From Methylotenera sp. G11 (GTDB taxonomy: Bacteria > Pseudomonadota > Gammaproteobacteria > Burkholderiales > Methylophilaceae): a stretch of DNA of 64,000 nt. A program made the translations under genes and the position numbers. The notes under the pieces are model-generated. The model had not been told where the DNA came from. It searched no databases and saw nothing but the letters and a program-made list of their open reading frames with translations. Where the stretch lies: NCBI RefSeq assembly GCF_000799735.1, contig NZ_JUHH01000001.1, positions 2,232,001-2,296,000 of the forward strand, written 5' to 3'. Below, piece by piece: positions 23,969-56,301 of the stretch; the stretch's first letter is position 1; every line of letters starts with the position of its first letter.

Positions 23969-24664
23969 ATGACTGCAACTTATCAAGTACTCATTACCGG
24001 TGCCAACCGTGGTATCGGGCTCGAATTCACCAGGCAGTATGCAAGGGATGGCTGGAACGTCATTGCCTGCTGCCGAGACTTGGCACAGGCCAAGGATCTG
24101 CAGCAGCTGGCGCAGGCATATCCGAACATTAAAACCTATGCGCTGGATGTCGCGGATTTTGATGCAATCGAGGCATTGGCGGCAGCCTTGAAAGATGTGA
24201 AGATCGACATACTGATCAATAACGCGGGAGTCTACCCGCACTCAGACCTGCAAGCGGCCGATGCCGGCGATTGGCTGCATGCCTTCAAGGTGAACAGCAT
24301 GGCGCCATTGAAAGTGGCTACCGCTTTTATGCCGAATATAGCCGCTAGCCAGCTCAGGAAGCTGGTGACGCTGTCTAGCAAGATGGGCAGCCTGGATGAC
24401 AATACCAGCGGTGGCAGTTATATCTACCGCAGCAGTAAAACCGCAGCCAATATGGTGATGAAAAGCCTGTCCATTGATTTGCAGCCGTATGGCATTGCTG
24501 TCGCAGTCCTGCACCCGGGCTGGGTGCAGACCGAGATGGGCGGTCCCGGTGCGCTTATCGATGCACAGACCAGTGTTTCAGGTCTGCGGCAGGTGATTGC
24601 CAATCTGGATTTGGCCAATAGCGGGCAATTCATTGCTTATGACGGCAAGGCCATCAACTGGTAA
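23969..24664 (+). CDS. Short-chain dehydrogenase/reductase (C-factor-like)
   Basis: Rossmann-fold NAD(P) oxidoreductase, 231 residues. Visible motifs: ITGANRGIGLEF (TGxxxGIG, residues ~9-17), ALDVADFDAI, NNAGVYP, the catalytic Ser in VTLSSKMGS and YxxxK in SYIYRSSKTAANM, then HPGWVQTEMGG. The HPGWVxTxMGG ending is typical of the CsgA/C-factor and sniffer-like SDR branch. Substrate unknown. Followed by a terminator. Confidence 0.9.
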   Translation: MTATYQVLITGANRGIGLEFTRQYARDGWNVIACCRDLAQAKDLQQLAQAYPNIKTYALDVADFDAIEALAAALKDVKIDILINNAGVYPHSDLQAADAGDWLHAFKVNSMAPLKVATAFMPNIAASQLRKLVTLSSKMGSLDDNTSGGSYIYRSSKTAANMVMKSLSIDLQPYGIAVAVLHPGWVQTEMGGPGALIDAQTSVSGLRQVIANLDLANSGQFIAYDGKAINW

Positions 24665-24721
24665 ACATTGAATGCCTGGCTCTGGCACGGCCGCAATGAA
24701 CCAACAAAATTATGAATACTC

Positions 24722-24749
24722 AAAAAAGAGCCTGCCAGGCTCTTTTTTT
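24722..24749 (+). terminator. Rho-independent terminator after the SDR gene
   Basis: AAAAAGAGCCTG and CAGGCTCTTTTTTT form a compact hairpin with a T tract, 58 bases after the SDR stop; the A-rich left arm would allow function in both directions. Confidence 0.88.
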
Positions 24750-24880
24750 ATTCAGGCACGGTAATTTGATAAATAAAATTTATCGTTTTGTTTTTAACAT
24801 TAAATTATACATATTAAAAGTAGGGGGTTATGATGTCTCCATCGTCATTGATTTCATGTGATGAATGAATAAGGAGGTAC

Positions 24881-24982
24881 ATGATGTACAGGCAAAGTTT
24901 TCAAACCATGGTTGAGGATGTACTGAATTTATCTGTATATGTGTTCGATGAAATGCTGGCAAGTTATGCGTTTGCCCATTGA
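24881..24982 (+). CDS. 33-residue small ORF upstream of catalase
   Basis: A short frame beginning MMYRQSF and ending SYAFAH. It has an unusually strong Shine-Dalgarno, AAGGAGG at 24871-24877, at ideal spacing, and lies 48 bases before the catalase ATG. The peptide is acidic and amphipathic with no signal. No family is recognised. It could be a real small protein or a leader peptide that couples translation to the catalase gene. Real coding status is supported only by the ribosome-binding site and position. Confidence 0.5.
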   Translation: MMYRQSFQTMVEDVLNLSVYVFDEMLASYAFAH

Positions 24983-25030
24983 TCTGTGCGTTGATATGGG
25001 CATTGTTTAATTAATATTGAGGAGAATAGT

Positions 25031-26533
25031 ATGACCAGTAAGATTTTAACTACATCAGCAGGGGCGCCGGTAGCCGATGACAATAACAGTATTTCAGCAG
25101 GTGCGCGCGGTCCTTTGACTTTCGACAACCACTATATGTTCGAGAAGCTTGCACACTTTAACCGCGAGCGTATTCCGGAGCGTGTCGTGCATGCGCGCGG
25201 CACAGGAGCTTACGGCACATTTACCGTCACCAGGAGCCTTAAGGATTTTACGATTGCAGATTTCCTGCAGAATGCAGGCCAGCAGACCGAAGTGTTCGTG
25301 CGGTTCTCGACCGTAGGCGGCGGCCAGGACTCCAGCGATTATGCACGTGACCCGCGCGGTTTTGCAGTGAAGTTCTATACTAAAGAAGGCAACTGGGATA
25401 TGGTCGGCAATAATACGCCGGTATTTTTCCTGAATGACCCGATTAAATTCCCGGATTTTATCCACTCACAGAAAAAAGACCCGCGTACCAACCTGCCCAA
25501 CCCAGCCAATGCATTTGAGTTCTGGGCGAATCATCCGCAGTCCCTGCACCAGATGACGATCCTGATGTCTGACCGGGGGATTCCGTTGTCGTACCGTCAT
25601 GTGCATGGGTTCAGTTCGCATACCTTGAGCCTTTATAACGCCAAAGGGGAGCGCTTCTGGGTGAAATGGCACTTTAAGACCAATCAGGGCATTAAAACCC
25701 TGACCAATGCAGAAGCAGCGCAGATGCCGGCGCATGGTGCGCAGCAGGACCTGGTGAATGCGATTGACCGCGGTGATTTCCCGTCCTGGCGCGTTGAAGT
25801 GCAGATCATGACGGAAGCCGAGGCCCGTACATACCGTATCAACCCATTCGACTTGACCAAGATCTGGCCGCATAAGGATTTTCCATTGATCGAGATCGGC
25901 AGGCTTGAATTGAACCGTAACGTGAATAACTATTTTGCCGAGACCGAGCAGGTATCTTTTGCGCCAAGTAATTTCGTGCCGGGTATCAATGCATCGCCGG
26001 ATAAAATGCTGCAAGGCCGTTTGCTGGCTTACCAGGATGCCGCACGCTATAGAATCGGTGCGAATGTAAACCAGATTCCGGTCAATGCACCGCGTTGTCC
26101 GGTCAACCATTATCAGCGTGATGGTGCGTTTGCCGGGATGGGTTGCCCGGTCGGGCATGGCGCAACTGCAGGTGCAGGTGCAACTGCCTACCCGAATGCG
26201 GCTGCGGCAGTCGATGCCCTGAATTTTTATCCGAATGACAGAACCGCAAACGGTGCGCCGGCGCCGGTAGCGGCAGTTGCGCCGCCGCCGATGCCGGCAC
26301 TGGAGAATGCATGGATCGGTTACCATGACCAGAGTGAGGAGGATTACTATACGCAGGCAGGTGACTTATTCCGCATCATGAATCATGAGCAAAAAGCGCA
26401 ACTGTTCAATAACATTGCGGGTGGATTGAGCCAGGCCAATACCGATATCCAGCAACGTATGCTGGCGCAGTTCGCCAAGGCAGATCCGTCTTATGCGGAG
26501 GGTGTGAAACAAGCCATTGCTGCGCTAGTTTAA
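25031..26533 (+). CDS. katA: Monofunctional haem catalase
   Basis: Degrades hydrogen peroxide, relevant for a methylotroph whose oxidative metabolism makes peroxide. 500 residues, small-subunit type. Distal His in RVVHARGTGAYG (about residue 59), distal Asn in MVGNNTPVFF (about 130), and the proximal haem-ligand Tyr in GRLLAYQDAARYRIG (about 339). GGAG precedes the ATG by 6 bases. The segment after RCPVNHYQRDG is altered relative to typical KatA: it has a second Cys-Pro-Val (GCPVGHG) followed by an Ala/Gly/Pro-rich linker of about 60 residues before the conserved C-terminal helices. Confidence 0.96.
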   Translation: MTSKILTTSAGAPVADDNNSISAGARGPLTFDNHYMFEKLAHFNRERIPERVVHARGTGAYGTFTVTRSLKDFTIADFLQNAGQQTEVFVRFSTVGGGQDSSDYARDPRGFAVKFYTKEGNWDMVGNNTPVFFLNDPIKFPDFIHSQKKDPRTNLPNPANAFEFWANHPQSLHQMTILMSDRGIPLSYRHVHGFSSHTLSLYNAKGERFWVKWHFKTNQGIKTLTNAEAAQMPAHGAQQDLVNAIDRGDFPSWRVEVQIMTEAEARTYRINPFDLTKIWPHKDFPLIEIGRLELNRNVNNYFAETEQVSFAPSNFVPGINASPDKMLQGRLLAYQDAARYRIGANVNQIPVNAPRCPVNHYQRDGAFAGMGCPVGHGATAGAGATAYPNAAAAVDALNFYPNDRTANGAPAPVAAVAPPPMPALENAWIGYHDQSEEDYYTQAGDLFRIMNHEQKAQLFNNIAGGLSQANTDIQQRMLAQFAKADPSYAEGVKQAIAALV

Positions 26534-26554
26534 AACGCAGAGCGAATGGCAGAG

Positions 26555-26583
26555 AAAAGGCTACCTTGGGGTAGCCTTTTTTT
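26555..26583 (+). terminator. Rho-independent terminator of katA
   Basis: AAAAGGCTACC and GGTAGCCTTTTTTT form a strong hairpin with a T tract, 22 bases after the katA stop. Confidence 0.9.
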
Positions 26584-26713
26584 ATGCTTAGGTAACACAA
26601 GCGGAATTTTGGCTTGCGGCTTTGTTTGAACATCTATAAAGTGGCCGCGATATTAATAAACTATTATTTTTAAAAGGGTTATACACCCTCAATGATGGCC
26701 CTGGTGATTACAC

Positions 26714-28132
26714 ATGAAGCTTTATGAGCAGCTTGCCAACTCTATCGCCCAATCAATCCAGGAGGGGGTACTTGGCCGAGGCGATAAATTACCGTCCGTG
26801 CGGCAGGCGAGCGAGAGCCGCGGGGTCAGTCCTGCAACCGTATTCCAGGCCTATTATCTGCTGGAAGCCAGGGGGCTGATAATCGCGCGGGAGCGATCCG
26901 GGTATTTTGTAACAGGCGGTGCAATCGGTATGCCACCCGCACCCGCTCCGCAGGTCGAGCCTAATATTGCCTCCATGCAGGTCGATGTCAGTGAACTGGT
27001 GTTTGAGGTGCTGGAATCCATCATCAATAATCATGCGGTTCCCCTGGGCTCGGCTTTTCCCAGCCCGTTCCTGTTTCCGCTCGATCAACTGGCTAAATGC
27101 ATGGCGCCGGCATTGCAGGCAATGGCCCCGTGGTCGGTGATGAGCAATATCAATCGCGGAGATGCGGAACTCAGGCGCCAGATAGCGCTGCGCTACATGA
27201 TTGGCGGCTTGAATATCGCCGCCGAGGAAATCATCATCACCAACGGGGCGATGGAGGCATTGAACCTGTGCCTGATGGCGGTAACGCGCCCGGGTGACAC
27301 CATACTGATCGAGTCGCCGACTTTTTTTGCAGCGCTGCAATCGATTGAGCGCATTGGCCTGCGCGCCGTCGCCATACCAAGTCACCCCGAATCCGGTATC
27401 GACCTGGCGGCAATGGAGCAGGCGATTATTCAGCACAAGCCCCAGGCCTGCTGGATCATGACTAATTTCCAGAACCCTTCAGGCAGCCTGATGCCGGATG
27501 AAAAAAAGAAAGCGCTGGTAGAACTGGTGACTAAATACCAGGTGCCGCTGCTGGAAGACGATGTGTTTGGTGAGCTATATTTTGGCGATAAACGCCCAAT
27601 GCCGGCAAAAGCCTTTGATACCGAAGGCCTGGTGATGCATTGCTCCTCATTCTCCAAATGCCTGGCACCAGGCTACCGGGTGGGCTGGGCAGCGCCAGGC
27701 CGCTACCTGAAGGCGGTTGAGCGATTGAAGATCACGACTACAGTGGCAACCTCACTGCCGGCACAACTGGCAATCGCCAGGTATTTGCAGAAAGGCGGCT
27801 ATGATAAGCACCTGCGTCACCTGCGCCAGGTCTTGCTGGTGAACCAGATCAAGTTCATAGAAGCCATCGAGCGCTATTTCCCTGAGGGAACATGCCTGTC
27901 CGCACCGCAGGGCGGTTACTTCTTATGGATCAAGCTGCCCGAAGGCGTAGACGCACTGCAATTGCATAAGCTGGCGCTTGTTGATGGCATCAGCATCGCG
28001 CCCGGGCCTATATTTTCTGCCCAGAGGAAATTCACGAATTACATCAGGCTGAATTACGGGCAGACCTGGAATATGCGTTATGAGATGTCGCTAAATGCGC
28101 TTGGTACCATCGTCAAGAACATGATGCGATAG
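26714..28132 (+). CDS. MocR-type GntR/aminotransferase-like transcriptional regulator
   Basis: 472 residues: an N-terminal GntR winged helix (residues 1-70: LYEQLANSIAQSI, GDKLPSVRQASESRGVS, GYFV) joined to a fold-type-I aminotransferase-like domain with NFQNPSGSLM, LLEDDVFGELYFG and the PLP lysine in HCSSFSKCLAPGYRVGW. Such MocR/PdxR-like proteins use PLP or a PLP adduct as ligand to control transcription. Monocistronic; the regulated gene is not obvious. No pdx gene is next to it. Confidence 0.92.
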   Translation: MKLYEQLANSIAQSIQEGVLGRGDKLPSVRQASESRGVSPATVFQAYYLLEARGLIIARERSGYFVTGGAIGMPPAPAPQVEPNIASMQVDVSELVFEVLESIINNHAVPLGSAFPSPFLFPLDQLAKCMAPALQAMAPWSVMSNINRGDAELRRQIALRYMIGGLNIAAEEIIITNGAMEALNLCLMAVTRPGDTILIESPTFFAALQSIERIGLRAVAIPSHPESGIDLAAMEQAIIQHKPQACWIMTNFQNPSGSLMPDEKKKALVELVTKYQVPLLEDDVFGELYFGDKRPMPAKAFDTEGLVMHCSSFSKCLAPGYRVGWAAPGRYLKAVERLKITTTVATSLPAQLAIARYLQKGGYDKHLRHLRQVLLVNQIKFIEAIERYFPEGTCLSAPQGGYFLWIKLPEGVDALQLHKLALVDGISIAPGPIFSAQRKFTNYIRLNYGQTWNMRYEMSLNALGTIVKNMMR

Positions 28133-28420
28133 TGGCCAGTGGTAAGCGCGCAGGCCTAATGAGAAAACTTGCAGGCTGATATGCTTTTTATTCAGCGATC
28201 TGCTTCTGTTTAAAATCTTCTAAACCATGTAATTTGCGCGATTGCGATAAATCCCGTACCCGGTGTACTGATGGCAGTTCCTGATCTGACATTGTTACCT
28301 GGTGGGATATGCTCTTTAACTCATTTTATTAACCAGCTGCTGCCGGCTGAATTCAATGGCAGCCGGCCAGCATGCACTGGCTGTATGATCTGGCTCAGTG
28401 ATGCCTGATATCAAGACGAT
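28133..28420. other. Gene-free region upstream of the ABC/phosphatase fusion
   Basis: 288 bases without a credible gene. One inverted repeat is visible near 28348-28373 (GCCGGCTG and CAGCCGGC around a 10-base loop), without a T tract. It presumably holds the promoter of the next gene; I cannot assign boxes with confidence. Confidence 0.4.
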
Positions 28421-29800
28421 ATGAATAAAATATTACCGATACAATTGCCGCAATCATCCTCGCAATTGTCTACGATCACAAATACCGGTGTGTCTCCAGA
28501 GAGCATGCTGCTTCGGCTTGAGGGTTTCGGCGTCACATTCGGCAGCAATGCCGTATTGAGTGATATATCGCTCAGTGTGCCGGACAAAGGGATGGTTGTG
28601 CTCACCGGGCCCAAGGGCACGGAAAGGGCAATCCTGCTGCGTACGCTGGCCGGCTTTGGCGCCAGGAGCGTTCCGCACCAGATGCTGGGAAGCGCAATCT
28701 ACCGCGGGGCGGCGCTGGGCGATAAAGGGCACGTTGCGCTCGTGGCGCAGAATGCACAGTTGATGATGGCCTCGGTGCTGGAGAATGTCATTGTGAATCT
28801 GCCTGAACGCAACCGGTTAACGCAGCCATTGCAGCGTGAGCTTGCGCAAAAGCTGCTCAAGGAGGCCGGATTGCAGGATCTTTGCGATCGGCTGGACCAG
28901 CCCATGGCGAGTTTACCGTTTGCATCGCAGCGGCATTTGTCGGTTCTGCGTGAGATCGTGGCCGATCCGCCACTGCTATGCATCGATGAGCCTATAGCAG
29001 GGATGGCAGATCCGGATGCCGGGCGTTTAATTGCTTATCTGCGCGACCAGGCCACGCACCGCGCACTGCTGGTGGCTGTTCACAGCCAGGCGCATGTGCG
29101 TCAGCTGGGCGGCAATGCCGTGCTAGTCGTGCATGGGCGCATGCTTGAGCTGCAGCCTGTCCCGCAAATATTTGATAGCCCATGTTCGCCGGCGGCAATC
29201 GAGTTTGCACAAACCGGTAAATGCAGTGCCGCAGCCTACGAAGCCTCATTAAATACCCAGCATGCAGACCATGGTTTACAGCCAATGCCGCTTTCTGATG
29301 CAGCCGTGCAGGTTCATGCGGAAAAAGTTGAGCAGAATAGCCAGGTCAGACTGGGGAGATTCATGTGGCTCAAGCGCGGTATGCTTGCGGCTACGCCGGT
29401 ACCCGGCAGGCACGGCAGTGTTGCCGGTGATTTGGAGGCTTTGCGCCAGCATGGGATTACAACGCTGATTACCTTGAGTGAGACCGGTATTGATGACGCT
29501 GCATTGCAGGCAGCCGGCCTGAAAAACATCTGGGAGCCTGTTCCCGATATGGAGGCGCCCAGCATTATCCAGGGGGTGCGTATCTGCAAGGAAATCGAGT
29601 CATTGCTGAAGCAGGGGGATGTGGTTGCAATCCAGAGTGATGCCGGGTTAGGCCGCACGGGTACCCTGCTGGTTGCGCACCTGTTATGGAAAGGCATACG
29701 CCTGAACGATGCACTGGAATACGTGCGCAGGGTGGAGCCGCGCTGGGTGCAGACACAGGCGCAGCTGGATTTTCTGGGTGAGTTTGCGCAGCGGGTTTAG
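28421..29800 (+). CDS. Fusion of a degenerate ABC ATPase domain and a degenerate dual-specificity phosphatase domain
   Basis: 459 residues. Residues ~30-250 follow an ABC-transporter ATPase: Q-loop Gln110, Walker B LLCIDEP (Asp189-Glu190) and H-loop His221 are intact, but Walker A is GPKGTERA (63-70) instead of GxxGxGK[ST] and the signature is PFASQ. Residues ~310-459 follow a dual-specificity phosphatase: the acid Asp376 (PVPDM) and loop end AGLGRTGT (Arg412) remain, but the HC pair of HCx5R is Gln405-Ser406. So both catalytic centres appear altered while the folds are kept. No signal or membrane span and no permease neighbour. Probably a binding or regulatory protein; its partner is unknown. 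Confidence 0.85.
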   Translation: MNKILPIQLPQSSSQLSTITNTGVSPESMLLRLEGFGVTFGSNAVLSDISLSVPDKGMVVLTGPKGTERAILLRTLAGFGARSVPHQMLGSAIYRGAALGDKGHVALVAQNAQLMMASVLENVIVNLPERNRLTQPLQRELAQKLLKEAGLQDLCDRLDQPMASLPFASQRHLSVLREIVADPPLLCIDEPIAGMADPDAGRLIAYLRDQATHRALLVAVHSQAHVRQLGGNAVLVVHGRMLELQPVPQIFDSPCSPAAIEFAQTGKCSAAAYEASLNTQHADHGLQPMPLSDAAVQVHAEKVEQNSQVRLGRFMWLKRGMLAATPVPGRHGSVAGDLEALRQHGITTLITLSETGIDDAALQAAGLKNIWEPVPDMEAPSIIQGVRICKEIESLLKQGDVVAIQSDAGLGRTGTLLVAHLLWKGIRLNDALEYVRRVEPRWVQTQAQLDFLGEFAQRV

Positions 29801-29815
29801 TATTGCGGTGCATCA

Positions 29816-30844
29816 TTATTGGCCTGACTGCCCAGCCAATTTGGGCGATTCAAGGTTGAGCGACTCCAGCGCTTCCTTATCCAGTGCGCTCAGCATTTTA
29901 CTGAAATCCTTGAGTTCCGATTGGTTGTCCTGGTCCCTTGCAATCCTTGCCAGGGCCAGAATACTGGATGTATGGTGAGGGTTGGCGGCCAGCGTTATGC
30001 GAAAATTTGTTTTGGCATCCTGTGTTTTTCCCAGGTTCTGCTGGGCAAGCGCCAGGTAATAGCTTGCTTCCGGGTCGTCCGGCGCCTGTTTTTTCCACTC
30101 GGTTGCGATGGCCAGCAGTTCTTGCCATTTCTCCGCCTGCATGGGCAGTACTACCTGCATCCAGTATGGGCGTTCTGCCAGGGGAGCATCCCAGAACGGG
30201 GCAGCGGTCTTGATGATCTTATCGGTTTCCGGCAACGACATTGCCGCCCTGATCCATTTGGCCGGAACATTATAGAAATAACCATTCGCGCCGGGGCTTT
30301 TGAAGGTACTCATGCCGATGACCCTTCCCTGGTCATCAAACAGCGGGCTGCCGCTGGCACCCATCTGGAATGATGCGGAGGTGCGGATCACATAGCTGCT
30401 ATCCATTGCGTAAAGCGCTTTGATTCTGCCCGTGGTGGTCAGTGGCTTTGCTGCGCCGCCCGGAAAGCCGACTGAAAATGTTGCGGTTTCATAGATGAGT
30501 TTTTCGCTGTCGCCGAAAGTTGCGGGTTTCAATGGCAGGTATTCAAAACGCAATATGCAGACATCATGTTTCCAGTCGGCCCGCACTCCGACCGGCGCAT
30601 AGGTTTCGCCGCGTGCGGCCACATTAACGCCGACTGCATTGCCCAGCACGTGGCAATTCGTAGCCACAAGATTCTCAGCCACAACAAATCCTGACCCGCT
30701 GCCCTGGCCGCCGGTGGTCGTGACGGTATGGATCTTCACGATGGTGCCTTTGAGGTTGTACACCAGTTCGGGAGAAGGCTCCGCCGACGCTGCCTGGCTC
30801 AAACCCATCAGTATCAGCATTGTGTTCAAAGCATAATTTTTCAT
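29816..30844 (-). CDS. Secreted trypsin-like serine protease with C-terminal helical repeats (paralogue A)
   Basis: 342 residues. Signal peptide 1-21 (ending SAASA), then a chymotrypsin/DegP-type domain with His65 (VATNCHVLG), Asp94 (DWKHDVCIL) and Ser164 (MGASGSPLF). After residue ~220 a TPR-like region follows (ASYYLALAQQNLGKTQDAK, HHTSSILALARIARD). No PDZ domain is seen. ATG at 30844 is supported by AGGAG 7-8 bases upstream. It is a clear paralogue of the protein at 42747-43760. Convergent with the ABC/phosphatase fusion (15-base gap). Confidence 0.9.
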   Translation of the reverse strand: MKNYALNTMLILMGLSQAASAEPSPELVYNLKGTIVKIHTVTTTGGQGSGSGFVVAENLVATNCHVLGNAVGVNVAARGETYAPVGVRADWKHDVCILRFEYLPLKPATFGDSEKLIYETATFSVGFPGGAAKPLTTTGRIKALYAMDSSYVIRTSASFQMGASGSPLFDDQGRVIGMSTFKSPGANGYFYNVPAKWIRAAMSLPETDKIIKTAAPFWDAPLAERPYWMQVVLPMQAEKWQELLAIATEWKKQAPDDPEASYYLALAQQNLGKTQDAKTNFRITLAANPHHTSSILALARIARDQDNQSELKDFSKMLSALDKEALESLNLESPKLAGQSGQ

Positions 30845-31043
30845 CGCGCGCTCCTGATCAATAAATGATGGATGCATCGTATCGCCATTGGTTCAAATGT
30901 CAGCAGGCATGTAATCATCAGCCGCCGGCAAAAATGTAATATACACGCGATGAAGCGGTGCCGTACTTAATAAGTGTTGCTGACTAACGCGCTGATTAAC
31001 TGTAAAATTCGCACTTTCGTTTAGCCACAGATTTGAATCTATT

Positions 31044-32765
31044 ATGCGCGCCTCACAATTTTTCTTTAACACTCAAAAAGAAGCCCCTAACGAAGCCGAA
31101 CTGCCAAGCCATATTCTAATGGTGCGTGCAGGGCTGATTAAGCGACTGGGTTCTGGCCTTTATAACTGGATGCCGCTGGGACTGCGTGTGCTGCGCAAGG
31201 TTGAAGCGGTTGTCCGCGATGAAATGAACAAGGCGGGTGCGCTGGAATTGCTGATGCCGGCCGTGCAGCCAAAAGAGCTGTGGGAGGAAACCGGCCGCTG
31301 GGCAGTATTTGGCCCGCAGATGCTTAAAATCAAGGACCGTCACGAGCGTGAGTTCTGCTTTGGCCCTACGCATGAGGAGGTGATTACCGACATTGCCCGT
31401 AAGGAAATCCGTAGTTACAAGCAGCTGCCGCTTAATTTTTACCAGATTCAGACCAAGTTCCGTGATGAGATCCGCCCGCGTTTCGGCGTGATGCGCGCAC
31501 GTGAATTCATGATGAAAGATGCGTACTCATTCCATACCGATTTCGCATCGCTGGAGCAGACTTACCAGACCATGTACCAGGCTTACAGTAATGTGTTCAC
31601 CCGTCTGGGACTCAAGTTCCGCGCAGTGCGTGCCGATACCGGTGCTATCGGCGGCGAGGGCTCGCACGAGTTCCACGTGCTGGCGGATTCCGGTGAAGAT
31701 GGCCTGGCCTATTGCGACACATCAGATTTTGCAGCCAACGTAGAGCTGGCCGAAGCCTTGCCTGCAGGCAGCGCAAGGGCTGCCGCAGCTGAAACGATGC
31801 GCGAAGTGGATACGCCCAAACAGACCTCGTGTGAAGATGTGGCTAAGCTTCTGGAAATAGGTATTGAGCGCACAGTGAAAGCGATTGCGCTGATCGCCAG
31901 AGATGAGGTTGCCGGTGACAGGTTCTACTTAGCGCTATTGCGCGGCGACCACAACCTGAACGAAGTCAAGATTGGTAAATTGGCAGGCTTTGCGGACTTC
32001 AGGTTCGCGACCGAAGAAGAAATCCGTGCTCACCTGAATTGTCCGCCAGGTTTCATTGGCCCGGTTGGTGTCGCTGCGAACGTGACCGTCATCGCTGACA
32101 GGACCGTTGCGCTGATGAGCGATTTTGTGTGCGGTGCCAATAAGCCCAAGTTCCATCTGGCCGGCGTGAATTTTGGCCGTGATTTGCCGGAGCCATCGCT
32201 GGTGGCCGATATCCGCAACGTGGTGGATGGCGATGCCAGCCCGGACGGCAAGGGCGTGCTGTCACTGTGCCGCGGTATTGAAGTCGGGCATATTTTCCAG
32301 CTGCGCACTAAATACTCAGAAGCCATGAGTGCGACTTACCTGGATGAAAATGGCCAGACCAAGACCATGGAAATGGGTTGCTACGGCATAGGTGTGTCAC
32401 GTATCGTAGGCGCTGCGATCGAACAGGGCAATGATGAGCGCGGTATTATTTTCCCCAAGAGCATGGCGCCGTTTGAAGTGGTGATCTGCGCGATCGGCTA
32501 CGACAAATCGGAAACGGTCAAAGCTGCAGCCATTAAACTGCATGATGATTTGCAGGCGGCAGGCGTGGATGTACTGCTTGATGACAGGGGCGAGCGCCCT
32601 GGCGTGATGTTTGCCGAGGCTGACCTGATGGGAATCCCGCATCGTCTGGTGGTCGGTGAGCGCGGCCTGGCCGAAGGCAATGTGGAATATAAAGCCAGGG
32701 TAGAGGCTGACGCCAGATCTGTCGCGCTGGTTTCGGTGGTTGAGTTTGTGCAGGATTTGGCATAA
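31044..32765 (+). CDS. proS: Prolyl-tRNA synthetase
   Basis: Class II synthetase charging tRNA-Pro. 573 residues, bacterial type with the editing insertion (INS) between motifs 2 and 3. Visible: motif 1 region [16 protein letters not shown], motif 2 [26 protein letters not shown], the INS domain around 224-410, motif 3 [17 protein letters not shown] and the C-terminal anticodon-binding domain with [22 protein letters not shown]. Length normal. ATG at 31044 begins the conserved MRASQFF. Confidence 0.98.
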
Positions 32766-42746: not shown

Positions 42747-43760
42747 TTATTCGCTCTTGAGGGCGAGCACTTTTGTTGATAGCTGTTCGGCTTCGCTTTC
42801 ATCGAGAGGCCTGATCAAACTGATGATTTTCTCAAGATCCGGCGCATTTTTTTCAAGAATCGCAATCTTTGACAGCGTGAGCATGGCATCCAGGTGACGG
42901 CCATTCAGTGTCATGCATTTATTTAAATGCTGTTTTGCTTCGGCAATCTGGCTGGATTCAAATTCAGCGATTCCGAGAAAATACCAGCTGTCTGCAAGCT
43001 GGGGCTGATCCTTTGTCCATAAACCGGCAATCCTTTTCAGCTCCTGCCACTCATGGTTCTGGAACGGCACGACCACTTGCATGAAATATGGGTGCTGGTT
43101 ATTCGGGAACGCCCAGAATGGCAGCTGATCTGTTTTCAAGGATAGCAGTTCCGGGGAGTCGAACAGCCGTTTGATCCATTCGACCGGCATGCTGTAAAAG
43201 AAGGAATTAGGTCCGGGATTCTTGAAGCTGGTGATGCCGATCAGGTTGAAATGCTGGTCGAACATCGCTCCGCCGCTGGAGCCTAGTGCAAATGCGGCAT
43301 TGGAGCGAATGATCAGGTTGCCATCAAGAGGATAGGTCGCCTTTATGCTGCCATAAGAAGGTTGCGGTACGCTATTGCCGCTTGGAAATCCCACCGTGAA
43401 TATTTCTTCCTCATACAGCAGCGTGGCGCTATCCCGCATCGGTACAGGTTTGAACGGCAGCTTGTCAAATTTCAGCAGGCACAGGTCGTGTTTCCAGTCG
43501 GCTTTCATGGCGATCGGCTGGTAGCCGTCGCCGTATTTTGCAATATTGGCACCGCGGGCATTTGCCAGTATGTGGCAATTGGTCGCCACATATTCATTGC
43601 TGACGACTACGCCGGTGCCGGTGCCGGTACTGCCATTGCCCAGGTCGACGCTCACATGCACAATAGACTCATTCAGTTTTAACAGATCCCCGATACCGGG
43701 TTGCGAGAAACCGCTGATAGGAGCTGCCAGTAAAGTTACCAGAAAAGCTGTTCTACCCAT
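42747..43760 (-). CDS. Secreted trypsin-like serine protease with C-terminal helical repeats (paralogue B)
   Basis: 337 residues. Signal peptide ~1-20 (FLVTLLAAPISGFS), protease domain with His63 (VATNCHILA), Asp92 (DWKHDLCLL) and Ser162 (LGSSGGAMF), then a TPR-like tail (SWYFLGIAEFESSQIAEAKQ; HLDAMLTLSKIAIL). It shares order and many short segments with 29816-30844 (ATNCH, ADWKHD, GFPxG, MPVEWIK versus VPAKWIR), so the two are paralogues. AAGGAG precedes ATG 43760; the frame opens further upstream without signal features. Confidence 0.9.
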   Translation of the reverse strand: MGRTAFLVTLLAAPISGFSQPGIGDLLKLNESIVHVSVDLGNGSTGTGTGVVVSNEYVATNCHILANARGANIAKYGDGYQPIAMKADWKHDLCLLKFDKLPFKPVPMRDSATLLYEEEIFTVGFPSGNSVPQPSYGSIKATYPLDGNLIIRSNAAFALGSSGGAMFDQHFNLIGITSFKNPGPNSFFYSMPVEWIKRLFDSPELLSLKTDQLPFWAFPNNQHPYFMQVVVPFQNHEWQELKRIAGLWTKDQPQLADSWYFLGIAEFESSQIAEAKQHLNKCMTLNGRHLDAMLTLSKIAILEKNAPDLEKIISLIRPLDESEAEQLSTKVLALKSE

Positions 43761-44067
43761 ATAAACTCCTTGGGGCTTGGTTTGCCTTGGCTCTCCGCTA
43801 AACACGTACTGATTCGCCGCGGCAGGTCGGCTATAGCTGCATCGCCCATGAATATTTGTGTGTGAAATGGTGTTTAGGTTCAATCCGGCTGCAGATGTAC
43901 GCTGCCAGGCGCATTAAATATGGCTTTTTTGCCTGTTTATTGCGCCTGCACACTGTTCAAGCCAATAAACACGGGTTATGATGGGGCCTGTTGTGCGAGG
44001 GGAGTGTAAATTCGCACAATGATGAGATTTGATTAAAATTCGTCTTAACTAATCAGGAACACTATCC
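43761..44067. other. Intergenic region upstream of HU
   Basis: 307 bases between the divergent protease B and HU genes. It contains an inverted repeat TGTGCGA / TCGCACA at about 43992-44018 and a TAAAAT box near 44034 that could be the HU -10 element. No gene is seen. Confidence 0.4.
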
Positions 44068-53014: not shown

Positions 53015-53740
53015 TCAGGCTTCATGCAAAATATCCGGTTCGATTTCAATAGGGTGCCAATCCCTTCCGGCTGCGGCAAGCGCAGCGCAGTAACCGCCTG
53101 GTGCTTCAATCTGCATCAGGCGCCATTCAGCAGTTGCTAGCCGGTTGTGCTCATCACTGCGTAAAGCGTCTGTATCCCCGGCCGCCTGCGATACGCAGAA
53201 CTGATGTGCAGGCCGTGTAAACCCAGTTCCCAAAGCCTTGATATAGGCTTCTTTGCGCACCCAGGTTTGAGTAAACGCCAGTTGCTGTTCATGGACAGGC
53301 CGCGATAGCAGGCCGGATATTTCTGCGGGTGAAAACACCAGGCGCGCAACCGATTCTGCATCCGCGACCTGTGCGATGGCCTGTATGTCGATGCCTACCG
53401 CCCTGTGCATCGCAACGGCCACCTTGGCCATGCGATGGCTATAAGATAGATTGAAGTGAAGGCCGGAGTTTTTGCCAAGATGCGGTTTTCCGGCCTGGCC
53501 ATATTCAAAACCCAGTGCCGCAGCATCGCCGCCCATATACAAAGCCAGAATCCTGCGCAAGGAAGCCCGTGCAATGATAAAGCGTTGTTTTACTTCCGGA
53601 ATGCGGATGCGCTCAGCGCGGCTGGTTTCTTCAGCGGATAGCAAAGAGGCGTGATGTGCGATTCCGGCCTTGTCGGTTTCAAGTTGAATGGTCCAGACAT
53701 GTACCTGGTTTTGATCCAGTGCGGGCAGTGATGTCGTCAT
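53015..53740 (-). CDS. Sfp-type 4'-phosphopantetheinyl transferase
   Basis: Activates carrier proteins by transferring phosphopantetheine from CoA to a serine. 241 residues, the two-lobed Sfp/Gsp class: GKPHLGKNSGLHFNLSYSHRM, the Mg-binding AVGIDIQAI (Gly-Ile-Asp) and the WVRKEAYIKALGTGF motif (WxxKEAxxKxxG). The ATG at 53740 overlaps the stop of the synthetase gene (ATGA), so the two are translationally coupled; the obvious client is Ser565 of that synthetase. The few codons upstream to 53764 overlap the synthetase and are ignored. Confidence 0.94.
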   Translation of the reverse strand: MTTSLPALDQNQVHVWTIQLETDKAGIAHHASLLSAEETSRAERIRIPEVKQRFIIARASLRRILALYMGGDAAALGFEYGQAGKPHLGKNSGLHFNLSYSHRMAKVAVAMHRAVGIDIQAIAQVADAESVARLVFSPAEISGLLSRPVHEQQLAFTQTWVRKEAYIKALGTGFTRPAHQFCVSQAAGDTDALRSDEHNRLATAEWRLMQIEAPGGYCAALAAAGRDWHPIEIEPDILHEA

Positions 53741-56301
53741 TTTGACCGGGCATTGTTGATGCATGCCTGCAGCGCCTCGGCTACATGCTTTACTGCCGGT
53801 AATCTCACCAGGCCACTATGGCTGGTTGGGAAAGAATGTGTCGTTACCGAGCCTTTGAACCATCTCTGCCAGCCCAGCAGCTTGTGTACAGTGTGTTTTG
53901 TAGATTCTTCAGCGATAAAAAAATCAATATACTGTGTGGATTTGCGGGGCTGATACGCCATGTGCGCATATTTATGCGCTTTATGCACATCCTGGATTTT
54001 AAACAGGCAGTTAAGCTTGAATGTCGTCAGGAAAGCTGAACGCAGCAGGTTGCGCATGCTGTGCGTTTTTCCGCGTAGCAGGCGTTTCAGGGCGTTAAGC
54101 CAGCGATGGCTCTGGTATATCCACGGGCAATAAGTATCCAGCAGAACCAGGGCAGCGACATGATCGCCTGATTGATTCAGTTGCTGTGCCATTTCGTAGG
54201 CAACCACGCCGCCACTGGAGTAACCTGTGATCAAATATGGCCCTTCGGGTTGTATCTGGCGCATGGCCTGGATGCAGTTGGCTGCAATGTGTTTAATGCT
54301 GCAATCGGGGGTGTGGCTGCCAAAAACACCGCGCGCCTGCAGGCCGTACACTGCCTGGTCTGGAGCCAGGTGGCGTGCCAGCAGGTAATAGTCGAGCAGG
54401 TGCCCGCCTTTGGTATGCACAGCAAACAGCGGTTGGCGGGAACCTTCCTTAATCAGTACCAGCTCCGGGTTGGCGCCAAACCGGTACTGGTCGCGCAATG
54501 CGCTGGCGATAGAGGCTATGGTGCCGCCGTGAAACCATAGAAAATCCAGGGGTAGCTTCTTCTGAAATACTTTTTCAATCTGATCTATCATCTGTGCGGC
54601 GAGCAGCGAATGTCCGCCAAGGTCGAAAAAATTGTCATGGATGCTGGTTGGCGCAACCTTAAGCAGGCTTTCCCAGATGGCAGCCAGATGGCGCTCGTAG
54701 GTATCAAAAGATTCCTGCCGCCCGGCAGTGGCTGTCTGTAACGGCAGAGGTCGCGGTAGTGCCATACGGTCTATTTTGCCGCTGGCAGTTAATGGCAGTT
54801 CAGGCAGCAATGTAAAATGACGGGGCAGCATGTATTCAGGCAATGATTGTTTGAGTGCCAATCTTATATCGCCAGGCTTGAGGCTGGGGTTGCGTGTCAC
54901 CATGTATGCCGCCAGAAATTTATCATCGGCTGCATCTTCACATGCAATGACAGCGGCATGCTGAATATCCGGCAGTGCCAGGAGTACAGCCTCTATCTCT
55001 CCCAGTTCAATCCTGAATCCCCTGATTTTTACCTGGCTATCTGAGCGGCCTAATACCTGCAAATAGCCATCAGGCAGCCAGCGCCCTCTGTCTCCGCTTT
55101 TGAATAAACGCTGTTCGGGTGTCTGTGCAAACGGGTGTGGCACGAACTTTTGAGCAGTCAGGCCGGGGGCATTGAAGTATCCTCTTGCCATCAGCCCGCC
55201 AAGGTAGACCTCGCCCTCTCTGCCGATTGGTACGGGCTGCATGGCCTCATCCAGTACGTAGACCTCCATCATGGCGGCGGGGCGTCCTGTGGCATGAATC
55301 CCATGTTGAGTATCCCGGCTTAATTTCATGGTGGCGGCGCCGGGAACCTCGGTGCAGCCATAGATAATATGCAGTTCGGCATTCAGGTGTGAAAGAAAAT
55401 CCTGTTTCAGTTGCAGCGGGATATCCTCACCTGAGCAGGTCACCGATTTAAGGGAATGGCAGAGTGCTATATTGTCTGAATCCAGCAGGGCGCGCAGTGC
55501 GGTTGGCGTTGAGACTAAATGGGTAATGCGGTGCCGATTGATATAGCTGGCTAGTTCCCGGAAATTTTTTTCCAGTCCGCGCGGTGCAATGAACAGCTGT
55601 TGCCCGCTGACCAGCGGGCGCAGCATCTCTGCCCTGGTAAAGGTCGTGCCGGAGTCGGTTTTAAGCATATGCCGCTCAGTGCCGCTATCAGCTACATGCT
55701 GCTCGCAGTAAGCACCATACGGAAACATGACGGCTTTCGGCTTGCCGGATGAGCCTGATGTGAAAAAGATGCAGGCCAGGTTCTGCGAGCTGACCTCGGC
55801 TGCCGGCAAACTGATCTCCTGATGTTCTTCAGCGTGTTCAGACGCATCCATCATGATCAGGAGTGTGTGCGCATCTTCCAGTTTTTCGTGATCAAGTCTT
55901 GCATGATATTGGTGTGTTGTAAGAATCACGCGCGGACTGATCTCCGCAAGCATCGCTTCCAGCCGCCTGGCCGGGGCGGATGGCTCAATGAAGGCACATG
56001 CCCCGCCGGCTTTATGGATGGCGATAGTGCCGATCACCAGCTCCGGGCAGCGTTCCATATATAAAGCAACAACAGTTTCAGGCCCCACGTCCATAGCGCT
56101 GAGCATTTTGCCGAAGTGATTTGCGCGTGCGTTCAGTTGAGCATAGGTAAGCTGACCGCCATCATGGGAAACGGCAATCGCGTCGGGTGTTTTCCTGACG
56201 TGAGCTTCAAACCGGCGGTGCGGCAGATTGGGTATTAGCGGCAGTACCGGGCCGCGGCCGAACTCAATGGTCATATGATTGTTATGTATGTCATCAGACA
56301 T
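53737..56301 (-). CDS. Single-module A-T-TE nonribosomal peptide synthetase-like enzyme
   Basis: 854 residues: adenylation domain ~25-520 (A3 FTSGSSGKPKA at 180-190; A5 IIYGCTEVPG; A7 FKSGDRGRW; A8 VKIRGFRIELGEIE; A10 Lys509 in LTASGKIDR), carrier domain with Ser565 (DLGGHSLLAA), thioesterase ~620-854 with Ser695 (ITGYSSGGVVAYEM). There is no condensation domain. In the A4 region (FTRAEMLRPLVSG, 221-233) the Asp that contacts the alpha-amino group in amino-acid-activating domains (FDxS) is Thr222, pointing to an alpha-keto, hydroxy or aryl acid. A-T-TE enzymes such as RalA of Ralstonia (furanone) and AtrA/TdiA (quinones) are the closest known design. Confidence 0.92.
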   Translation of the reverse strand: MSDDIHNNHMTIEFGRGPVLPLIPNLPHRRFEAHVRKTPDAIAVSHDGGQLTYAQLNARANHFGKMLSAMDVGPETVVALYMERCPELVIGTIAIHKAGGACAFIEPSAPARRLEAMLAEISPRVILTTHQYHARLDHEKLEDAHTLLIMMDASEHAEEHQEISLPAAEVSSQNLACIFFTSGSSGKPKAVMFPYGAYCEQHVADSGTERHMLKTDSGTTFTRAEMLRPLVSGQQLFIAPRGLEKNFRELASYINRHRITHLVSTPTALRALLDSDNIALCHSLKSVTCSGEDIPLQLKQDFLSHLNAELHIIYGCTEVPGAATMKLSRDTQHGIHATGRPAAMMEVYVLDEAMQPVPIGREGEVYLGGLMARGYFNAPGLTAQKFVPHPFAQTPEQRLFKSGDRGRWLPDGYLQVLGRSDSQVKIRGFRIELGEIEAVLLALPDIQHAAVIACEDAADDKFLAAYMVTRNPSLKPGDIRLALKQSLPEYMLPRHFTLLPELPLTASGKIDRMALPRPLPLQTATAGRQESFDTYERHLAAIWESLLKVAPTSIHDNFFDLGGHSLLAAQMIDQIEKVFQKKLPLDFLWFHGGTIASIASALRDQYRFGANPELVLIKEGSRQPLFAVHTKGGHLLDYYLLARHLAPDQAVYGLQARGVFGSHTPDCSIKHIAANCIQAMRQIQPEGPYLITGYSSGGVVAYEMAQQLNQSGDHVAALVLLDTYCPWIYQSHRWLNALKRLLRGKTHSMRNLLRSAFLTTFKLNCLFKIQDVHKAHKYAHMAYQPRKSTQYIDFFIAEESTKHTVHKLLGWQRWFKGSVTTHSFPTSHSGLVRLPAVKHVAEALQACINNARSK

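What the first reader, a model, noticed from the sequence alone, without database searches (positions are those of the whole stretch)
28421..29800. Double pseudoenzyme: ABC ATPase without Walker A Lys fused to a phosphatase with Cys-to-Ser
Seen: Walker A is GPKGTERA (residues 63-70), so the invariant Lys and Ser/Thr are gone, while Walker B, Q-loop and H-loop persist. In the C-terminal dual-specificity phosphatase domain the HCx5R loop reads Gln405-Ser406 ... Arg412, with the general acid region PVPDM kept. Established: Cys-to-Ser in this loop abolishes catalysis but allows substrate trapping, and natural pseudophosphatases (STYX) work as binders. Inference: the protein is a phospho-dependent scaffold or sensor, an architecture I do not recognise.
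Basis: partly seen in the sequence, partly recalled or inferred. Interest (0 to 1): 0.8.

Follow-up and report, generated by a model that had tools for sequence, protein, structure and literature searches.

The report
Dead twin of an ABC-phosphatase fusion
The gene makes a two-part protein in which both the ATP-binding site and the phosphatase site are broken, while a second, intact copy in the same bacterium sits in a little-known signalling operon, so the broken copy is probably a non-catalytic partner or competitor of its twin, or a gene on its way out.

Summary
In detail: 28421-29800 (+) encodes a 459-aa ABC ATPase-phosphatase (DSP) fusion with Walker A GPKGTERA and phosphatase loop QSDAGLGR. 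The architecture is a real, patchy family: I found 14 other members, one a 54%-identical paralogue in the same genome, and 14 of 14 have intact GK[ST] and HCx5R. So the dead sites are not conserved across species, and no orthologue of the window copy was found (187 genomes of its family, E <= 1e-24). Yet it is no plain pseudogene: the frame is whole, divergence is codon-structured, and it keeps 12 of 17 catalytic-motif and 28 of 38 other family-invariant residues. It evolved faster than its paralogue and, unlike the 14, lacks the partner gene downstream. The intact paralogue's operon resembles Group 3 MglA GTPase/roadblock modules; my searches listed no ABC-DSP component of these in print. Most likely a lineage-specific double pseudoenzyme acting, if at all, as non-catalytic partner or competitor of the intact copy. 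Recent decay is the main rival. 'Phospho-dependent sensor' is untested.

The parts
28421..29800 (+). P0001, ABC ATPase-DSP phosphatase fusion, 459 aa, both catalytic centres altered
28607..28630 (+). degenerate Walker A, residues 63-70 GPKGTERA (paralogue: GPSGTGKS)
28748..28750 (+). Q-loop Gln110, kept
   Evidence: invariant in the 14 others and kept
28913..28933 (+). place of the ABC signature, residues 165-171 LPFASQR; degenerate in all 15 aligned members
28970..28993 (+). Walker B and catalytic Glu, residues 184-191 PLLCIDEP, kept
29081..29083 (+). H-loop His221, kept
29546..29548 (+). general-acid Asp376 of the phosphatase half, kept
29633..29656 (+). degenerate phosphatase loop, residues 405-412 QSDAGLGR (paralogue: HCRAGLGR)
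26714..28132 (+). upstream neighbour: MocR-type regulator (GntR + aminotransferase class I/II); no match in the 14-kb syntenic stretches of two relatives
29816..30877 (-). downstream convergent neighbour: trypsin-like peptidase; beside proS in two relatives whose stretches hold no P0001 match

Best explanation
P0001 is a lineage-specific, catalytically dead paralogue (or xenologue) of an ABC ATPase-DSP fusion whose intact form is coded elsewhere in the same genome beside an MglA-type GTPase, a Roadblock/LC7 protein and a highly conserved unknown protein (P0004). Since the copies parted it has lost the gene neighbourhood, the Walker A Lys/Ser and the phosphatase His-Cys, and it evolved faster while much of the fold stayed under constraint. 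Shown by sequence: the dead motifs, the intact paralogue and family, the orphan position, the rate difference and a signature of constraint. Inferred: it is expressed, folds, and works without catalysis by pairing with or competing with the intact fusion for its partner or substrate, damping or redirecting that GTPase module.
For: The paralogue P0002 is intact and 54% identical over the full length. 14 of 14 other members have intact GK[ST] and HCx5R. A P0004-like gene follows the fusion in 14 of 14 intact loci (11, 3), and the genome gave one P0004 match, beside P0002. P0001's tree branch is 0.83, against 0.08 for P0002 and 0.09 for G906. Relative-rate counts with 6 outgroups (of 12 possible) give 65-83 changes unique to P0001 against 14-27 unique to P0002. 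Constraint: differences from P0002 at codon positions 1/2/3 are 0.38/0.28/0.64; the omega = 1 model is worse by 27.6 lnL; neutral drift to 54% identity gives 9.7 stops on average and 0 of 300 runs without one. Family-invariant residues kept: 12 of 17 in catalytic motifs, 28 of 38 elsewhere.
Against: No orthologue with the same dead motifs was found in 187 genomes of the family, of which 119 are at least 90% complete and at most 5% contaminated, so long-term maintenance is not shown. The constraint may have acted before the catalytic losses. The synonymous distance is saturated (t about 11) and a one-ratio model fits as well as separate ratios. P0001 changed more family-conserved positions than any other member: 15 of 55 against 0-6, and at an 85% threshold 31 of 108 against 0-12. 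Catalytic-motif residues were not lost preferentially (5 of 17 against 10 of 38). The only structure prediction, from a single sequence, was useless (mean pLDDT 37.6). No expression or interaction data exist here.
Confidence: 0.5

Rival explanations
1. A redundant copy that recently lost both activities and is on its way to becoming a pseudogene; the intact frame only reflects that too little time has passed since the losses.
For: 14 of 14 other members are intact; no orthologue found in the family; orphan position, with no match to it in the syntenic stretches of two relatives; 15 of 55 family-invariant residues changed, against 0-6 in each other member by leave-one-out. Upstream there is one weak promoter-like match on the + strand (28286-28313, 9 of 12); the region held 4 such sites against 1.9 (sd 1.6) in shuffles, so expression is neither supported nor excluded.
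Against: No stop or frameshift at 46% amino-acid difference; codon-structured divergence; the rest of the GLGRTG loop, Walker B, Q- and H-loop are intact.
Confidence: 0.32
2. One reading: a phospho-dependent scaffold or sensor that binds phosphorylated ligand with the dead phosphatase loop, STYX-like.
For: R412, the GLGRTG loop and D376 are kept. Natural pseudophosphatases such as STYX bind the substrate and compete with the active enzyme (PMC10211241, passages read).
Against: The residue after the Cys position is Asp407, found in 0 of 14 others (they have R, L, K or H), which may weaken phosphate binding (inference). I know of no substrate for any family member. The dead loop was found in no other species.
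Confidence: 0.12
3. P0001 keeps some chemistry by other means, for example ATP binding through Arg69 or a Ser-dependent activity of the DSP half.
For: Walker B, catalytic Glu, H-loop and the phosphatase Arg and Asp remain.
Against: Gly68, Lys69, Ser70, His405 and Cys406 are all gone; loss of the Walker A Lys or of the DSP Cys alone is normally inactivating (established knowledge, recalled).
Confidence: 0.05

Closest known systems
ABC-DSP fusion family with intact motifs (P0002 in the same genome and 13 in other genomes; no curated name seen)
   Same: Same two domains in the same order, same degenerate signature motif, 29-54% identity to P0001.
   Different: 14 of 14 keep GK[ST] and HCx5R and are followed by a P0004-like gene; P0001 has neither.
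PstB phosphate-transport ATPase (TIGR00972)
   Same: Best-scoring NCBIfam model, over the N-terminal half (72.3 bits).
   Different: Far below the model's cut-off of 343.2 bits; signature motif lost; no permease recognised by sight beside it.
Prokaryotic DSP phosphatases (PF22785, PF22784; PDB 25xa)
   Same: C-terminal half matches over most of its length.
   Different: His-Cys of the catalytic loop replaced by Gln-Ser. The Pfam name mentions a polymorphic toxin system; nothing seen here suggests a toxin.
Group 3 MglA GTPase modules (Wuichet and Sogaard-Andersen 2014, PMC4316618)
   Same: The paralogue's operon holds an MglA-like GTPase lacking the G4 Lys and with an invariant G5 Arg, a Roadblock/LC7 protein and a preceding protein of unknown kind, as described for Group 3.
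   Different: An ABC-DSP fusion and P0004 sit inside the operon. The paper's main text has no occurrence of 'phosphatase'; its supplementary neighbourhood table could not be read here. The window copy is not in such an operon.
STYX and other pseudophosphatases
   Same: Catalytic Cys replaced, Arg of the loop kept (STYX from passages).
   Different: STYX has Gly, not Ser, at the Cys position and an intact His (recalled). Here the fused ATPase is altered too and conservation is not shown.

Membership tests
active ABC ATPase | Walker A GxxGxGK[ST] | tested here: not met
   GPKGTERA
active ABC ATPase | LSGGQ-type signature | tested here: not met
   LPFASQR; also degenerate in the other 14 members
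active ABC ATPase | Walker B Asp-Glu, Q-loop Gln, H-loop His | tested here: met
   D189/E190, Q110, H221
ABC_tran fold (PF00005) | score over the curated cut-off | tested here: met
   34.8 bits, cut-off 25
PstB (TIGR00972) | score over the curated cut-off | tested here: not met
   72.3 bits, cut-off 343.2
DSP-type phosphatase fold (PF22785) | score over the curated cut-off | tested here: met
   66.9 bits, cut-off 27; PF00782 DSPc is below its own cut-off (30.8 against 33.5)
active Cys-based phosphatase | HCx5R | tested here: not met
   QSDAGLGR
ABC-DSP fusion family (defined here) | both domains in this order, full-length alignment, clade with P0002 and G906 | tested here: met
   clade of the three supported 100/99
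ABC-DSP fusion family (defined here) | P0004-like gene directly downstream | tested here: not met
   14 of 14 intact loci have it; the window copy does not (tblastn)
Group 3 MglA module (for the paralogue's operon) | GTPase without the G4 Lys and with Asp-x-Arg at G5 | tested here: met
   T125-R126, D156 and R158 invariant in 8 of 8 GTPases aligned; criterion, shared by Groups 2 and 3, from PMC4316618
Group 3 MglA module (for the paralogue's operon) | coupled MglB/roadblock protein | tested here: met
   P0005 Robl_LC7, 50.6 bits, cut-off 23
Group 3 MglA module (for the paralogue's operon) | conserved receiver-like plus winged-helix protein | tested here: inconclusive
   the preceding ORF is conserved but has only sub-cut-off HTH matches
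conserved pseudophosphatase (STYX-like) | inactivating change conserved in orthologues | tested here: not met
   no orthologue found in 187 genomes; 14 of 14 other members intact
conserved pseudophosphatase (STYX-like) | binds the phosphorylated substrate | not testable with these tools
   needs protein

The most novel reading that the evidence does not exclude
P0001 is a maintained double pseudoenzyme that works as a built-in antagonist or adaptor of an undescribed signalling module in which an ABC ATPase fused to a protein phosphatase reads out, or is switched by, an MglA-type GTPase and its roadblock proteins.
Probability: 0.35. Interest if true: 0.68.

Novelty: new variant of a known kind. 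Interest (0 to 1): 0.47.

Why it matters
If the dead copy is maintained, it is a bacterial case of one protein losing two unrelated enzyme activities while the intact twin stays in the same cell, so regulation of an active enzyme by its dead paralogue could be tested in one genome. Apart from that, the intact family links ABC ATPases and protein phosphatases to bacterial Ras-like GTPase modules, a link I did not see in the listings of my paper searches (several were capped at 10-15 of 18-45 papers).

Tried and rejected
Conserved pseudoenzyme across species: not supported, 14 of 14 other members are intact. Plain pseudogene or sequencing error: not favoured. Transporter ATPase: by sight no permease beside either copy, and the PstB score is far below its cut-off. 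Plasmid- or virus-borne gene: no match in plasmids; in viral contigs 6 stretches matched a peptide pattern and none encoded a relative. Remnants of the operon's other genes around the window copy: none significant (tblastn of P0004-P0007 against 27601-31200, best E 0.5). A P0004 structural relative: no convincing PDB or Pfam match; hhalign with the roadblock protein aligned only 34 C-terminal columns at 76% probability, a lead only. Fold of P0001: single-sequence AlphaFold gave mean pLDDT 37.6 and was not searched further. The genome-contig scan found only a distant ABC match (28% over residues 30-242). Rows dropped: the summary alignment A4 left out G743 (13 of 14); the P0004 alignment A2 left out G169, whose gene my pattern missed although one search shows it (13 of 14); the relative-rate test used 6 of 12 possible outgroups. 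The first family alignment had three rows with wrong coordinates and is not used; one search replaces it. In the genome searches only the best 4-8 candidates per genome were scored, so weak second copies could have been missed.

Full report
WHAT IS THERE. The frame 28421-29800 (+) encodes one 459-aa protein, P0001. Its N-terminal half matches ABC_tran at residues 46-193 (34.8 bits, cut-off 25). Its C-terminal half matches a DSP-type phosphatase model, PF22785, at 327-425 (66.9 bits, cut-off 27). Both halves match solved structures by sequence, the phosphatase half best with PDB 25xa (E 2.9e-17).

THE GENOME. The window is part of a 2,545,099-base single-contig genome. PQQ methanol/ethanol-type dehydrogenases (8 matches, 3 over the family cut-off; the 14 control genomes gave none over it) and a family that contains genera with single-contig genomes of 1.3-1.4 Mb suggest a methylotroph of the Methylophilaceae. 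This is an inference; no call gave a name.

AN INTACT TWIN. The same genome holds a full-length paralogue, P0002, at G000:C1:601584-602954, at 55% identity by the search and 54% in alignments. Its Walker A reads GPSGTGKST and its phosphatase loop HCRAGLGRTG. A run of 16 bases that spans the start codon is identical in the two copies.

A FAMILY, ALL OTHERS INTACT. Searches gave: 2 of 61 genomes (relatives, E <= 1e-20), 5 of 399 (order sample, E <= 1e-24), 7 of 369 (class sample, E <= 1e-45), 5 of 187 (family as held, E <= 1e-24) and 4 of 398 (phylum sample, E <= 1e-40). These sets overlap, each count includes the own genome, and only the best few candidates per genome were scored. Together they give 14 members besides P0001: P0002 and one each in 13 other genomes. 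In the aligned set 14 of 14 have GK[ST] in Walker A and HCx5R in the phosphatase loop, and P0001 alone lacks both. The ABC signature is degenerate in all 15 (for example LPLALQR), so a non-canonical ABC half is a family trait. At these thresholds only the window's genome showed two copies.

CONTEXT OF THE INTACT COPIES. A P0004-like gene follows the fusion in 14 of 14 intact loci (11, 3). It is strikingly conserved: 62-96% identity to P0004 in the 13 aligned, against 38-85% to P0002 for the fusion in the 13 aligned. It has no Pfam, NCBIfam or convincing PDB match. An MglA-like GTPase gene was matched by pattern in 8 of 14 loci. A Roadblock/LC7 protein like P0005 was matched in 7 of 14: 6 of 11 by BLAST and L041; L042 and L043 were only looked at by eye. 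The other six loci (G001, G129, G169, G598, G849, G904) form the other main branch of the tree; no GTPase was matched in the 10-20 kb held of each. The GTPases lack the G4 lysine and keep an arginine at G5 (T125-R126, D156-x-R158 in 8 of 8). That is what Wuichet and Sogaard-Andersen describe for Group 2 and 3 MglA proteins. Group 3, almost only in beta/gamma-proteobacteria, is typically one unknown protein, MglA and one or two MglB (PMC4316618; section 18 read whole, passages). The paper's main text has no occurrence of 'phosphatase'; its supplement could not be read here. In the P0002 operon a ferredoxin/FAD/NAD reductase-globin protein follows.

THE WINDOW COPY IS AN ORPHAN. No part of that operon was recognised around P0001: upstream is a MocR-type regulator, downstream a convergent trypsin-like peptidase, and tblastn with four of the operon's proteins found nothing significant in 27601-31200 (best E 0.5). 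The genome gave one P0004 match, beside P0002. Of 5 stretches fetched around the peptidase gene of relatives, 2 (G011, G017) show the peptidase-proS-queA block in synteny, and neither holds a match to P0001 or to the MocR regulator. G906, the relative with the closest operon, has an 85% identical copy of P0002 and no second match over threshold; its assembly is 92% complete.

DECAY OR MAINTENANCE. P0001 has the longer branch: 0.83 against 0.08 (P0002) and 0.09 (G906); the pairing of the latter two has modest support, 82/69. With six outgroups (of 12 possible), changes unique to P0001 number 65-83 and those unique to P0002 14-27, p below 1e-4 in each whole-protein test. Against free decay: differences from P0002 per codon position are 0.38, 0.28 and 0.64; omega on the P0001 branch is about 0.09, and omega = 1 is worse by 27.6 log units. 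But the synonymous distance is saturated and a single omega for all branches fits equally well (-4107.74 against -4107.43), so relaxation is neither shown nor excluded by that model. Random drift of P0002 to 54% identity gave 9.7 stops on average and 0 of 300 runs without a stop. Of 55 positions invariant in the other 14, P0001 changed 15: 5 of 17 in catalytic motifs and 10 of 38 elsewhere; the other members changed 0-6 in leave-one-out counts, and at an 85% threshold P0001 changed 31 of 108 against 0-12. So catalytic residues have lost their special protection, many conserved positions have been given up, and yet most, including Walker B, Q- and H-loop, Asp376 and Arg412, persist. When the catalytic losses happened relative to the rest cannot be told without orthologues.

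MECHANISM. The best-supported reading is a dead, fast-evolving duplicate that can still fold and may pair with or compete with the intact fusion. Dead relatives that bind the substrate of an active enzyme are documented (STYX against DUSP4; PMC10211241, passages read). Here no interaction is shown. The Asp after the nucleophile position is unique in the aligned family and may disfavour phosphate binding (inference).

LITERATURE. Searches for an ABC ATPase joined to a phosphatase in a GTPase/roadblock context, and for pseudophosphatases with ABC ATPases, listed no description of this family by title or start of abstract. Searches listed 10-15 of 18-45 papers, and most subscription papers are not held. 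Apart from PMC4316618 and PMC10211241, papers were seen only in search listings.

VERDICT. The wider family is the more interesting result.

Noticed in passing
L014:6306-11607 (G000:C1 about 600306-605607): Apparent operon: HTH-like ORF, MglA-like GTPase, intact ABC-DSP fusion, P0004 (very conserved, no known family), Roadblock/LC7 protein, ferredoxin-FAD/NAD reductase-globin fusion.
   Followed up: partly
L015, L030, L031, L036, L042, L043: Second branch of the fusion family, 4 of 6 with a clearly longer linker (521-588 aa proteins), paired with P0004 but with no GTPase matched nearby.
   Followed up: partly
window 29816-30877 and 42747-43883: Two related trypsin-like peptidases; the family is often multi-copy in this genus (38 of 52 genomes have at least one match at E <= 1e-60, up to 4 each).
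   Followed up: partly
window 53015-56301: Single-module adenylation-carrier-thioesterase protein followed by a phosphopantetheinyl transferase on the same strand, product unknown.
   Followed up: no
L065 3188-7482 against window 24664-29816: At the syntenic place relative G011 has a different long frame (726 aa, by sight catalase-peroxidase-like) where the window has a catalase, the MocR regulator and P0001: a variable spot between the SDR gene and proS.
   Followed up: partly
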